This document shows positions 20,365 to 23,713 of a DNA stretch of 62,571 nucleotides, piece after piece. The notes beneath the pieces were generated by a model, which was not told the origin of the DNA, made no database searches, and saw nothing but the letters and a program-made list of their open reading frames with translations. The DNA is from Bacteroidales bacterium (GTDB lineage Bacteria; Bacteroidota; Bacteroidia; Bacteroidales; UBA932), in NCBI GenBank assembly GCA_017519865.1, contig JAFWRQ010000031.1, forward strand, positions 1 through 62,571, written 5' to 3'. Numbering within the stretch: position 1 is the stretch's first letter; every line of letters begins with the position of its first letter. The position numbers were made by a program, and so were the translations under genes.

Positions 20365-20961
20365 TTATGATATGAGATTCGCTATAATTCCGGCAATTTG
20401 CATAGGGGAGAGGGTGTCTGTGTCGATGATGAAATCGGCCGCGGCGGAGTAGACCGGTGTCCGCTCCTGCAGGAGCGCCTCGAAGCCGCCGCCCTTCAGC
20501 AGCGGCCGCTGGCTCTGCTCCCCTCCGAGGCGGAGCCGCAGCGTCTCCGGGGTGGCCCTCAGGAATATGCACGTGCAATGCTCCCGGATCAAGGCGGCGT
20601 TCTCCGGCCTCAGTATCGCCCCGCCCCCCAGTGACAAAATGAAACTCAATTCGGGGGAAGTGTCCTCGGAAACTGTGCCACCCTCGGCAACATAAGAGGG
20701 GGGGACCCAAGCGCGCTTGGGGGGGGTCCGAAGGACGTTTCGGAGGGCACTTCCCCCGAATAGCAATTCCTTCAGGGCTGTTGTCTCGAGGTCGCGGAAG
20801 GCCTTTTCGCCCGACTGGGCGAAGATGTCGGGGATGGACATTCCGGCTCTCTCCTCTATATACCGGTCCAGGTCGACGACGGGTATGCCGAGCAGCGTCG
20901 AGAGTTCCCTCCCGACGCTGCTCTTGCCGCATCCCATGAAACCGGTCAGTGCGACTATCAT
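20365..20961 (-). CDS. aroK: Shikimate kinase with an in-frame inserted segment
   Basis: This 198-residue enzyme phosphorylates shikimate with ATP; the family is usually about 170-180 residues. Seen: Walker A GFMGCGKSSVG (about residues 8-18), the shikimate-binding aspartate in PVVDLDRYIEE, FRDLE, SLGGGAI, and the lid region SQRPLL. Residues 67-104 are extra, lying between the helix ending KELL and the strand before SLGGG. They are encoded by a 113-base palindromic element (20649-20761). All catalytic motifs survive, so the enzyme is probably active. The ATG at 20959-20961 follows the parC stop by one base, better than an upstream ATG inside parC. Confidence 0.9.
   Translation of the reverse strand: MIVALTGFMGCGKSSVGRELSTLLGIPVVDLDRYIEERAGMSIPDIFAQSGEKAFRDLETTALKELLFGGSALRNVLRTPPKRAWVPPSYVAEGGTVSEDTSPELSFILSLGGGAILRPENAALIREHCTCIFLRATPETLRLRLGGEQSQRPLLKGGGFEALLQERTPVYSAAADFIIDTDTLSPMQIAGIIANLIS
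20649..20761. repeat. Palindromic element inserted in frame in shikimate kinase
   Basis: The ends ATTCGGGGGAAGTG (20649-20662) and CACTTCCCCCGAAT (20748-20761) are perfect 14-base inverted repeats. With two mismatches they continue to about 25 bases (to about 20673 and from about 20737). The centre holds a perfect 16-base palindrome CCCAAGCGCGCTTGGG (20706-20721). The whole unit could fold into a cruciform or RNA hairpin. It is G/C-run-rich, unlike the surrounding coding sequence, and contains no stop codon in the host frame. No second copy was seen in this window. Confidence 0.8.
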
Positions 20962-20962
20962 C

Positions 20963-23713
20963 CTAGAAAAGGGTAAGGTCCTCTCCGTCATCGACTTCGG
21001 GGACGTTAATCTGGCTCATGTCGATGTCCGGGATGACGATCTCGTCCGGAGCGTCGATGATGTCGGACATGTCGATCTCGCCTGCAAGGTTCTCCGGCTC
21101 GGCCTCGGGCTTCTCTTCCTCGAAGTCCTCGGGCTTCACCAGAGGCTCGATGAACTCCACTTTCTTCAGGTCCCAGGAATGGCATTTCTTGCCCTTGGCG
21201 GCGATGCCCTTCTTGGCGATGTACTCCTCGGCGTCGATTTTCTCGGGCTCGCGGTGGGCATATTTGCCGGCGAATGTGACCTGCACCTGGGGATGCCTGT
21301 CGTCGCTGAGCGCCACCAGGTAAGAACTCCTGCCCTCGGCTATGAACGAAACCGGGGTATTGTCACTGAGGACGAATGAGAAACGCTTGATATAGAATGC
21401 CTTGACTGAAGCGTCCCAGTACAGGGCGGTGTAGGTCTTGTTCGGGTCGAACTTCTCGATTTTGAGAACGTCGCCCTGATATTTGTTCACCAGGTCGAAG
21501 GACGTGGTGTAGAAAGTGCCGTTCTTGAAAATGGCCAGGACCTTGTCGTCGGTCTCGAACTGTCCGAGGTACAGGCCCCTGCCGTCCTCGTTCAACTTCT
21601 GGATATCGGCGTCGTACCAGATGTCCTTGCCGGAAATCGTCGACACGCCCTTGCTCTTGAGCTGGATGCGCTGTATGGGGAACTTCGACACGAGGTTGCC
21701 GCGCGAAGTCTTGCCCTTGATGGCTAGGGTCGAGAAATCGTATTCCATCGACGATTTCTTCAGTTTGGCGCGCGGCCGCAGGTAGATGCGCACCGACTCC
21801 GCCTCACCGTTGTGGTTGGCCGTGAACCAGAGTATGGTCGACCCCGGGGCCCCGGTGGTAATGTCGTACTCCTTGTCGCGCGTTACGGATGTGATGGCGA
21901 AGCGCTTGGCATACGATACCGAACTCTTGCCCTCGCGGTATATCACGTTGTAGATCGTGCGGGTGTCTCCACGGTGGAAAACGCCCACGTACAGCAGATT
22001 CTTTCCGAAGAACGCCTTGTCCGTGACCTTGGTGATGATGTACTTGCCGTCCTTGCCTATGACGATGATCTCCGACAGGTCGGAGCAATCGCAGATATAT
22101 TCTCCGTTGTCGTCGCGCTTTAGGCCGATGCCAACGAAGCCTTCGGCCATGTTGGCGTAGAGTTTGGCGTTGTTGTTCACTACCTTGGTGGCGGCGATGG
22201 TCTCGAAGTTGGTGATCTCTGTCTGGCGCGGGAAGGCCTTGCCATATTTCTTCTTGAGACCCTTGAACCAGTCGATGGTGTACCGGGTGATATGGGCTAT
22301 CTTGTCCTTGACGTCGTTTATCTCCTGCTCGATGCCGCGGATCTTCTCGTCTATGGCCTTGGTATCGAACTTGGAGATCTTGCGCACCGGCTTCTCCACG
22401 AGTTTCAGGATGTCGTCCATCACGATCTCGCGTGTGAGAAGGTCCTGGTATTCCTTCATCCGCTCGAACACGTCGCCGATCTGCTCTTCCCAGCTCTTCT
22501 GGTCCTGTTCCAGGACCTTGTAGATGCGGTTTTCAAAGAAAATGCGCTCCAGCGAACTGTAATGCCATTCGTTCTCCAGTTCATCGAGCCTGATGCGCAA
22601 CTGGCGTTCGAGTATGTCGCGGGTATGGTAGGTGTCATATTCGAGGATCTCGTCAACGTCCATGAACTGGGGCTTGTTGTCCTTGATCACGCAGGCGTTG
22701 GGAGAGATGTTGATCTCGCAGTCGGTGAATGCGTAGAGGGCGTCGATGGTCTTGTCGGGGGACACGTCGTTCGGGAGGTGGATGATGATCTCCACGTGGT
22801 CCGTGGTCATGTCGTCGATCTTCTTGATCTTGATCTTGCCCTTGTCCTTGGCCTTGAGTATGGAGTCTATGACGATGCCAGAGGTCTTGCTGTACGGGAT
22901 CTCGGTGATGGCGATGGTGTTCTTGTCGATCTTGTCGATCTTGGCGCGCACCTTCACCACGCCGCCGCGGCGGCCCTTGAGGTATTTGGAGCAGTCGGCG
23001 GAGCCTCCGGTGGGGAAATCGGGGTAGAGTTCGTAAGGTTTCCCTTCGAGTATGGCCACCGAAGCGTCAAGAAGTTCGTTGAAATTGTGGGGCAGGATCT
23101 TGGAGGCCATACCGACGGCGATGCCTTCGGTGCCCTGCGCAAGCAGGAGGGGGAAACGGACCGGGAGTTCCGTAGGCTCCTGGTTGCGGCCGTCGTAGGA
23201 GGTCATCCAGTTCGTGACCTTCGGGTCGAAGATCACCTCCTTGGCGAATTTGCTAAGGCGAGCTTCAATGTATCGGGGGGCGGCGTTTGAGTCGCCCGTA
23301 AGGATGTTTCCCCAGTTTCCCTGGCAGTCCACGGCATAGCCTTTCTGACCCAGCTGCACGAGGGCGCCCAGTATCGAGGCGTCACCGTGAGGGTGATACT
23401 GCATGGCCTGTCCCACGATGTTGGCGACCTTGGTGTAGGCCCCGTCGTCCATCCTGTACATGGCGTGTAGGACCCTGCGCTGGACCGGCTTCAGGCCATC
23501 CACGATGTGCGGGACGGCGCGCTGAAGGATCACGTATGAAGAATAGTCCAGGAACCAGTCCTTGAACATTCCCGAAAGCTTGAACTTGCGGCTGTCATCG
23601 CCGAGAAGCTTGTCATATTTCCCCGATGGGACGGCGGATTCGTCCACCATCTCCTCTCCTTCTCCGATGGGCTCCTGGGAGTCCATGATCTCGTCGTTGT
23701 ACTCTTCGTCCAT
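20963..23713 (-). CDS. parC: Topoisomerase IV / gyrase-type subunit A
   Basis: This 916-residue type IIA topoisomerase A subunit has an acidic N-terminal tail (about residues 1-45). The breakage-reunion domain contains SSYVILQRAVPHIVDGLKPVQRRVLHAMY and YHPHGDASI, and the catalytic tyrosine is in NAAPRYIEARL. A coiled-coil tower follows, then a C-terminal beta-pinwheel-like region and a strongly acidic tail ending in VDDGEDLTLF. The C-terminal half looks like the Bacteroidota ParC-type protein rather than GyrA, but parE is not nearby, so the symbol is tentative. An intercistronic hairpin separates it from era. Confidence 0.88.
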   Translation of the reverse strand: MDEEYNDEIMDSQEPIGEGEEMVDESAVPSGKYDKLLGDDSRKFKLSGMFKDWFLDYSSYVILQRAVPHIVDGLKPVQRRVLHAMYRMDDGAYTKVANIVGQAMQYHPHGDASILGALVQLGQKGYAVDCQGNWGNILTGDSNAAPRYIEARLSKFAKEVIFDPKVTNWMTSYDGRNQEPTELPVRFPLLLAQGTEGIAVGMASKILPHNFNELLDASVAILEGKPYELYPDFPTGGSADCSKYLKGRRGGVVKVRAKIDKIDKNTIAITEIPYSKTSGIVIDSILKAKDKGKIKIKKIDDMTTDHVEIIIHLPNDVSPDKTIDALYAFTDCEINISPNACVIKDNKPQFMDVDEILEYDTYHTRDILERQLRIRLDELENEWHYSSLERIFFENRIYKVLEQDQKSWEEQIGDVFERMKEYQDLLTREIVMDDILKLVEKPVRKISKFDTKAIDEKIRGIEQEINDVKDKIAHITRYTIDWFKGLKKKYGKAFPRQTEITNFETIAATKVVNNNAKLYANMAEGFVGIGLKRDDNGEYICDCSDLSEIIVIGKDGKYIITKVTDKAFFGKNLLYVGVFHRGDTRTIYNVIYREGKSSVSYAKRFAITSVTRDKEYDITTGAPGSTILWFTANHNGEAESVRIYLRPRAKLKKSSMEYDFSTLAIKGKTSRGNLVSKFPIQRIQLKSKGVSTISGKDIWYDADIQKLNEDGRGLYLGQFETDDKVLAIFKNGTFYTTSFDLVNKYQGDVLKIEKFDPNKTYTALYWDASVKAFYIKRFSFVLSDNTPVSFIAEGRSSYLVALSDDRHPQVQVTFAGKYAHREPEKIDAEEYIAKKGIAAKGKKCHSWDLKKVEFIEPLVKPEDFEEEKPEAEPENLAGEIDMSDIIDAPDEIVIPDIDMSQINVPEVDDGEDLTLF

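What the first reader, a model, noticed from the sequence alone, without database searches (positions are those of the whole stretch)
20649..20761. Palindromic element inserted in frame inside shikimate kinase
A 113-base block with perfect 14-base ends (extending to about 25 bases with two mismatches) and a central 16-base palindrome sits inside aroK. It adds about 38 residues between two conserved motifs without a stop or frame loss. Its G-runs differ from the host gene. This is the pattern of coding palindromic mobile elements such as the Rickettsia RPEs, which I know as an established class but not from this lineage. If multi-copy, it would be a new protein-invading repeat family in Bacteroidales.
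Basis: partly seen in the sequence, partly recalled or inferred. Interest (0 to 1): 0.78.

Follow-up and report, generated by a model that had tools for sequence, protein, structure and literature searches.

The report
Flipping palindrome inserted in bacterial proteins
A 113-base hairpin-forming repeat sits in frame inside a bacterial enzyme gene and is one copy of a DNA family, found across a group of gut Bacteroidales, that makes housekeeping proteins carry an extra peptide and whose middle part can lie either way round.

Summary
The block at 20649-20761 adds about 36-38 residues to shikimate kinase. It belongs to a dispersed family: 9 model matches in this genome and matches in 84 of 101 genomes of the genus (up to 43 each, lower bounds), but only 3 of 294 other genomes sampled from the order. 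Many copies lie in frame in genes such as uvrA, pcrA, recR, dnaX, truB, rsmF and fmt. A conserved ~60-75-nt core with small hairpins is closed by an outer stem, usually 15-31 bp, that differs in sequence between most copies yet stays self-complementary. Orthologous copies show double compensatory arm changes. At 17 orthologous sites compared, 9 differ in core orientation between species; in 5 of them (uvrA, pcrA, mtaB, M16, fmt) the turned cores are 86-94% identical. Best reading: a non-autonomous palindromic mobile element of the REP/RPE kind, whose arms are homogenised and whose core is inverted by template switching during replication. A HUH (Y1) transposase may mobilise it; that rests on co-occurrence only. 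Intragenic REPs and RPEs are known; this family, its copy-specific arms and in-place coding inversion appear new.

The parts
20649..20761 (+). whole palindromic element, 113 nt
   Evidence: one of 9 covariance-model matches in this genome
20649..20673 (+). left outer arm (copy-specific sequence)
   Evidence: pairs with 20737-20761 with two mismatches; differs from the arms of the other copies in this genome
20674..20736 (+). conserved core
   Evidence: core alignment A2; model match 20674-20739
20676..20689 (+). core hairpin P2, T-GCC / GGC-A around loop ACCCTC
   Evidence: 100% of cells paired and U-A to G-C covariation at one pair in 27 distinct sequences; the minimum-energy fold of this copy shows the competing CCCTC-GAGGG stem instead
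20681..20700 (+). CCCTC (20681-20685) with GAGGG (20696-20700): pseudoknot with P2 or an alternative stem
   Evidence: 99.3% of cells paired but nearly invariant, so no covariation support; formed in the fold
20706..20721 (+). core hairpin P3, perfect 16-base palindrome
   Evidence: 4 of 5 pairs show a change on both sides across the family, 83% of cells paired
20726..20736 (+). core hairpin P4, GTCC-GAA-GGAC
   Evidence: fold; sequence
20737..20761 (+). right outer arm, complement of the left arm
20365..20991 (-). host gene, shikimate kinase (aroK), open through the element
   Evidence: ORF; Pfam SKI; insert lies between residues 77 and 114 of the query

Best explanation
It is one copy of a family of short, non-autonomous palindromic mobile elements of ruminant-gut Bacteroidales. 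Shown by sequence: many copies at unrelated sites; in-frame tolerance inside protein linkers; arms that are copy-specific but complementary and change in compensating pairs; cores that lie inverted at orthologous sites. Shown at one site only: arms and core absent together in the relatives, as if the whole hairpin came in as a unit. Inferred: polymerase template switching between the two arms during replication copies one arm onto the other, keeping the palindrome while its sequence drifts, and sometimes inverts the core. Five of six frames of this copy are open, so either orientation can be translated. Inferred and weak: mobility of single-stranded hairpins by a HUH Y1 transposase acting in trans.
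For: Copies: 84 of 101 genus genomes. Arms: in 106 unique copies the own arms pair 13.6 of 16 positions on average (86 of 106 with 13 or more), swapped arms 9.2 (17 of 1049 with 13 or more), both under the same best-fit search; mean pairwise identity is 0.90 for 24 core bases and 0.32 for the outer 8 arm bases. Within one genome, core against arm identity: G014 0.97/0.49, G016 0.97/0.37, G082 0.97/0.62, G089 0.90/0.65, G105 0.80/0.48, G000 0.80/0.66. Compensation: L029/L102 has 3 double and 1 single change, pairing kept at all 24 arm pairs; aroK of G000/G105 has 7 double changes with pairing kept and 1 with pairing lost in 22 arm pairs; aroK of L044/L045 has one double change; fmt of G066/G114 has one in 17. 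Inversion: opposite core orientation with turned cores 67-73 of 78 identical in uvrA, mtaB and pcrA (G000/G105), the M16 gene (G000/G072) and fmt (G066/G017); in fmt the asymmetric inner arms turned with the core, and G066, G114, G033, G017 and the empty G096 are all in frame. Whole-unit insertion: G066 site 3 carries arms and core, G017 and G114 neither. Arm homogenisation and spacer inversion by template switching are described in PMC8604942 (passages read), compensatory stem changes in PMC8794818 (abstract and opening read).
Against: Template switching is inferred from its products; the published spacer inversions in coding DNA were 2-5 bp, here the core is 60-75 nt. In 8 of 17 sites orientation is the same, and in 4 of the 9 opposite ones the cores are poorly alike, so replacement or a new insertion is as likely there. 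Pairing is not always kept: L104/L140 has one double change but four gains or losses of pairing, and 20 of 106 copies pair at fewer than 13 of 16 positions. No autonomous partner was found: 0 of 20 RAYT loci read carry the core. High core uniformity with very different arms within a genome is not fully explained by template switching. The genomes are consensus assemblies, mostly incomplete.
Confidence: 0.72

Rival explanations
1. The palindrome is kept by natural selection because it works as a structured RNA or DNA (regulator, protein-binding site, processing signal); compensatory arm changes reflect purifying selection, not a mutational mechanism.
For: Core conserved across the genus and into other families; P2 and P3 covary; in G308 and G226 a copy lies between the ends of convergent ORFs.
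Against: Relative to the longest ORF across it the core lies in either direction (23 same, 19 opposite) and it is turned at orthologous sites; 17 of 101 genus genomes have no detected copy.
Confidence: 0.15
2. The different orientations and arms at the same gene are independent insertions or replacements in a few tolerant linkers, not in-place inversion.
For: The aroK linker has taken up several different inserts in the genus; PF02390 (trmB-type) and RsmF-type genes are hit in both G066 and G082; four of nine opposite-orientation sites have poorly alike cores; aroK cores of G000 and G105 differ in their loops.
Against: At least five of the eight G000 sites read are shared with G105 (aroK and uvrA by ortholog search; recR, mtaB and pcrA because G105 loci with the element turned out to be these genes), and the inverted pairs in uvrA, mtaB, pcrA, M16 and fmt keep 67-73 of 78 core letters.
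Confidence: 0.15
3. A site-specific recombinase inverts the core, as in Bacteroidales phase variation (recalled).
For: Inner arms share a loose motif, C-rich followed by GAAAAC.
Against: No fixed recombination site is seen, since outer arms differ between copies. A dedicated recombinase was not looked for.
Confidence: 0.08
4. The core inserts into the loop of hairpins that already exist, so the arms are host DNA.
For: Some sites look by eye like short native palindromes split by the insert (sequences).
Against: In 647,041 bases of fetched loci (mostly chosen for the element or its host genes) 61 of 76 strong inverted repeats contain the core, 7 more are core variants by eye, and only 8 are other hairpins; at G066 site 3 the relatives lack both arms.
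Confidence: 0.05

Closest known systems
Rickettsia palindromic elements (RPE) in open reading frames
   Same: palindromes inserted in frame in genes likely to encode functional proteins, as cited in PMC3733652 (passages and section 15 read)
   Different: other phylum; no sequence comparison made; copy-specific arms and in-place inversion are not mentioned in what I read
Intragenic GTAG/CGTC REPs (PMC3733652)
   Same: short palindromic repeats inside genes, with many hosts in DNA synthesis and repair and RNA modification, including uvrA, UvrD/REP helicase and the tRNA pseudouridine synthase B gene (section 15 read); here uvrA, UvrD-type helicase, recR, dnaX and TruB are among the hosts
   Different: those REPs are 20-40 bp with 8-9 bp stems (CGTC families) and an unpaired tag; here about 110-150 nt with a long variable outer stem and no unpaired tag
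REPINs with RAYT transposases (PMC3116915, listing seen only)
   Same: hairpin-forming mobile repeats, possible HUH transposase in trans
   Different: as recalled, REPINs have conserved ends and a variable middle; here the middle is conserved and the ends vary; no copy beside the 20 RAYT-like genes read
Template-switch evolution of inverted repeats (PMC8604942, PMC8794818)
   Same: arm homogenisation, spacer inversion, compensatory stem changes
   Different: described for yeast coding inverted repeats with small spacers and for RNA genes, not for a dispersed mobile coding element
Coding palindromes of Nematomorpha mitochondria (PMC6649704, abstract read)
   Same: long inverted repeats kept within translated genes
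   Different: there both arms encode conserved host protein; here the insert is foreign to the protein

Membership tests
RPE-like protein-invading palindromic element | multi-copy palindrome dispersed at unrelated loci | tested here: met
RPE-like protein-invading palindromic element | in-frame insertion in protein genes, with orthologs that lack it | tested here: met
   aroK, uvrA, fmt
RPE-like protein-invading palindromic element | sequence homology to a Rickettsia or Wolbachia RPE family | not tested
   no RPE sequence was fetched
RPE-like protein-invading palindromic element | insert present in the mature protein | not testable with these tools
   no transcript or proteome data
GTAG or CGTC REP | 20-40 bp unit with short stem and an unpaired GTAG or CGTC tag at one end | tested here: not met
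   element 113 nt; a CGTC string occurs beside P4 on the minus strand but its GTC is paired (definition)
REP/REPIN of a RAYT (REPtron) | copies flank the RAYT gene | tested here: not met
   core absent from 20 of 20 RAYT-like loci read, up to about 1.5 kb each side; these are the best loci, not all matches
REP/REPIN of a RAYT (REPtron) | a RAYT in the genome | tested here: inconclusive
   Y1_Tnp at E <= 0.001 in 75 of 84 element-bearing and 3 of 17 element-free genomes, three absences inferred by elimination from a cut list; independent pairs on a UvrA tree of 97 genomes 4.8 same way, 0.0 opposite, median p 0.0625; controls PF01609 p 0.41 and PF00078 p 0.78
MITE | terminal inverted repeats of constant sequence | tested here: not met
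   arms differ between most copies; a subset of six G016 copies does share arms
MITE | target-site duplication | tested here: inconclusive
   no empty site close enough at nucleotide level
Rfam RNA family | match to a covariance model | tested here: not met
   18 loci searched at E up to 1: mir-214 (E 0.026, 27.1 bits against a gathering score of 66.7, lying over the element in L019) and flavi_FSE (E 0.34, beside it in L017), both read as chance

The most novel reading that the evidence does not exclude
The family is a recombinase-free flip cassette of proteins: template switching between the arms inverts the core often enough that UvrA, PcrA, MtaB, Fmt and other housekeeping proteins exist with two alternative inserted peptides within a species or even a strain, and a HUH transposase spreads the cassette.
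Probability: 0.2. Interest if true: 0.9.

Novelty: new variant of a known kind. Interest (0 to 1): 0.74.

Why it matters
It suggests that REP/RPE-like elements have invaded coding sequence widely in a large uncultured Bacteroidales group, with hosts in the same functional classes reported for unrelated REPs. It offers many natural replicates in which arm homogenisation and core inversion can be followed in a mobile element. It also warns annotators that such linkers are foreign and can be reversed between related species, and that covariation in a stem need not mean a selected RNA.

Tried and rejected
Rfam search of 18 loci gave no meaningful family. Arms as host-derived or as earlier hairpins were not supported. 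The empty fmt site of G096 looked at first like a pre-insertion site with one arm, but similar arms in G066, G114 and G033 make a secondary deletion likelier. RAYT flanks as donor ends: no core found there; flanks of part of these loci were read by eye. A possible autonomous version between two inverted G016 copies (L155): no transposase seen among the ORFs, only a larger intergenic repeat. An alignment with the outer arms failed to line up the stem, so arms were analysed by script. From I do not use L106/L141 (out of register by one base), L017/L133 (the wrong one of two copies was paired), L008/L147 (truncated copy) or L036/L131 and L033/L136 (diverged cores); L029/L102 failed there and was recounted. 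In one search the loose pattern also gave spurious hits (a second hit in M16, L106, L104, L033, and single hits without a partner in mtaB, L119, L036, L106, L104 and L026) that I dropped; L104/L140 and L104/L135 count as one site. L020/L111, L040/L137, L014/L128 and L027/L129 were looked at and left out, as the elements do not lie at the same place or only one genome has one there. Paper searches for a description in Bacteroidales: all 6 terms, 0 papers; 2 of 5 terms, 6,984 papers, 10 listed; 4 of 5 terms, 9 papers, among them an unread paper on Porphyromonas gingivalis repeats, PMC5771137; 4 of 5 terms, 1 paper; no listed title or abstract start describes this element. Only open-licence papers are held. 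IMG/VR had no exact match to the core pattern.

Full report
Check of the observation. The block 20649-20761 is as described: perfect 14-base ends, 25-base arms with two mismatches, a 16-base central palindrome, and an open frame through a 208-aa shikimate kinase ORF on the minus strand. Pfam SKI matches in two stretches. Folding of either strand is far more stable than shuffles. In 101 genus genomes 89 had an AroK match; most matched the parts before about residue 77 and after about residue 114 as separate pieces or only one of them, so the segment is an insert.

The family. A search of the own genome found 7 further clear matches, one shortened, and chance-level fragments. A covariance model of the core, built from 28 copies, matched in 84 of 101 genus genomes, with 9 matches in the own genome and 19 in the related G105; counts are lower bounds because at most 48 candidates per genome were scored with strict filters. 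In 295 genomes drawn from the order 4 had a match: the own genome, one of another genus of the family (G226) and two of other families (G278, G308). No exact match exists in the viral contigs.

Anatomy. The core reads GTGCCACCCTCGGC-N4-TAAGAGGG in its commonest form, then a hairpin flanked by G runs, then a second hairpin. Hairpins P2 and P3 pair in 100% and 83% of cells, with changes on both sides in one and four pairs; the CCCTC-GAGGG pairing is nearly invariant, so covariation says nothing about it, and it competes with P2 unless the two form a pseudoknot. Around the core lies an outer stem, usually 15-31 bp, shorter in some copies. In 106 unique copies the stem is specific to the copy: own arms pair 13.6 of 16 bases, swapped arms 9.2, while 20 of 106 own pairs fall below 13. 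Core bases are 90% alike between copies, the outer arm bases 32%. Inside one genome cores are 80-97% alike and arms 37-66% (six genomes, 3 to 7 copies each).

Where copies lie. By the longest ORF across each copy, a mechanical measure, 42 of 74 copies in eight genomes lie in ORFs of 220 aa or more, and two more in the aroK genes of G000 and G105 just below that length. Random positions in the same loci lie in such ORFs more often, 971 of 1232, so genes are not preferred; they are tolerated, to a degree that differs by lineage: 7 of 8 in G000 and 12 of 14 in G105 with aroK counted, 7 of 9 in G082, 5 of 7 in G089, 6 of 6 in G121, 6 of 13 in G066, 1 of 13 in G016, 0 of 4 in G014. Orientation relative to that ORF is balanced, 23 same and 19 opposite. 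The seven G000 host ORFs all match Pfam families: shikimate kinase, UvrD-type helicase (here called pcrA), UvrA, M16 peptidase, DnaX, a UPF0004/radical-SAM protein (here called mtaB, by recall) and RecR. Of 28 further spanning ORFs scanned (one of 29 listed was left out), 22 matched a family, among them TruB, ATP synthase gamma, a PP-loop protein (TilS by recall), a UvrD-type helicase, RNA methyltransferases (PF04452, RsmB/F type twice, PF02390 twice, PF10672), formyltransferase, an RNB nuclease and FtsK. Hosts in DNA repair and RNA modification are also what Di Nocera and colleagues report for intragenic REPs (section 15 of PMC3733652). I made no genome-wide statistic of this.

Age and mobility. 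G000 and G105 share the insert in aroK and uvrA, found by ortholog search, and in recR, mtaB and pcrA, found because G105 loci with the element proved to be these genes. Of 97 UvrA proteins read 77 linkers were printed; outside G000 and G105 only G027 shows an element there, with a recognisable core. So the uvrA insertions are confined to few lineages. At G066 site 3, between genes, arms and core are present while G017 and G114 show a continuous flank with neither, which suggests that the hairpin came in as a unit; a lineage-specific earlier sequence cannot be excluded. Its outer arms were not seen in the other G066 copies printed.

How the copies change. Orthologous arms change in pairs. In the intergenic pair L029/L102, 3 pairs changed on both sides and 1 on one side, with pairing kept at all 24; the 78 core-region letters are 76 identical. 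In aroK of G000 and G105 7 of 22 arm pairs changed on both sides with pairing kept and 1 with pairing lost. One double change separates the aroK inserts of L044 and L045 and one the fmt arms of G066 and G114. L104/L140 shows one double change and four gains or losses of pairing. Cores also lie turned round. Of 17 orthologous sites checked by script, 8 have one orientation and 9 differ between genomes. In five of the nine the turned cores are closely alike: uvrA 71, mtaB 67, pcrA 73, M16 72 and fmt 68 of 78 letters. In the other four (second copy of L106/L141, L104/L135, L033/L136, and L026/L114 with only one flank) they are poorly alike, 38 of 78 to 57 of 84, and replacement is as likely. In fmt the asymmetric inner arms turned with the core, and all versions, the empty G096 included, stay in frame. 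Template switching between inverted-repeat arms is known to homogenise arms and invert spacers (PMC8604942, passages) and to make compensatory stem changes (PMC8794818, abstract and opening). I take it as the most likely cause; it was not observed directly.

What moves it. Among three families tested over the same 101 genomes only Y1_Tnp (PF01797) follows the element: absent in 14 of 17 element-free and 9 of 84 element-bearing genomes (Fisher p 8e-9 on my tally, with three absences inferred from a cut list). DDE_Tnp_1 and RVT_1 show no link (p 0.41 and 0.78). On a UvrA tree of 97 genomes the independent pairs agree in direction (4.8 same, 0.0 opposite on average) but the median p is 0.0625. 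The 20 RAYT-like loci read do not carry this element, and several have other repeats beside them (by eye). The mobiliser is thus a guess.

Against the reading. Genomes are metagenome-assembled and many incomplete. Core uniformity within a genome combined with strong arm divergence is not fully explained. Some sites may be re-used by independent insertions, as the aroK linker with its many different inserts suggests. No translation evidence exists.

Verdict. A real, multi-copy, protein-invading palindromic element family, close in kind to RPEs and intragenic REPs, but with an inverted plan (conserved middle, variable self-matching ends) and a core that turns round in coding sequence.

Noticed in passing
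L061 (G124 aroK) and L236 (G027 uvrA): In-frame segments encoding CHSERSEES, which I take by recall for the translation of another palindromic repeat, occur in the same two genes.
   Followed up: no
L052, L064 (aroK of G115 and G098): The same AroK linker carries tandem peptide repeats (GGGLVADGSSAS; HTPSSLTPGNEGICRSTAG), so this loop is a general hot spot for inserts.
   Followed up: no
L079 (G000 C9:36808-40023): The RAYT-like gene of the window's genome is followed by its own palindromic repeat (CATCCTTCGGG..CCCGAAGGATG), and a similar sequence lies inside the upstream ORF, which stays open.
   Followed up: partly
L008 about 1440-1560 (recR of G000): A truncated copy: the right half is lost and part of the left side now matches the native right flank as an inverted copy, as a template switch might leave it.
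   Followed up: partly
L154, L155, L224, L310, L311 (G016): Six copies share the same arms and lie in longer intergenic repeats of about 170 nt and more, without a visible transposase.
   Followed up: partly
L337 about 2556-2797 (G114): At the place where G066 and G017 carry the element in a gene with 4Fe-4S domains, G114 shows a core-less inverted duplication instead.
   Followed up: no
L056 (G109 aroK): Two inverted element-like pieces lie within the gene, far apart, and can pair with each other in the fold.
   Followed up: no
L194, L198, L201 (G278): In another family of the order several copies lie near contig ends or each other, and two copies share the same arms.
   Followed up: no
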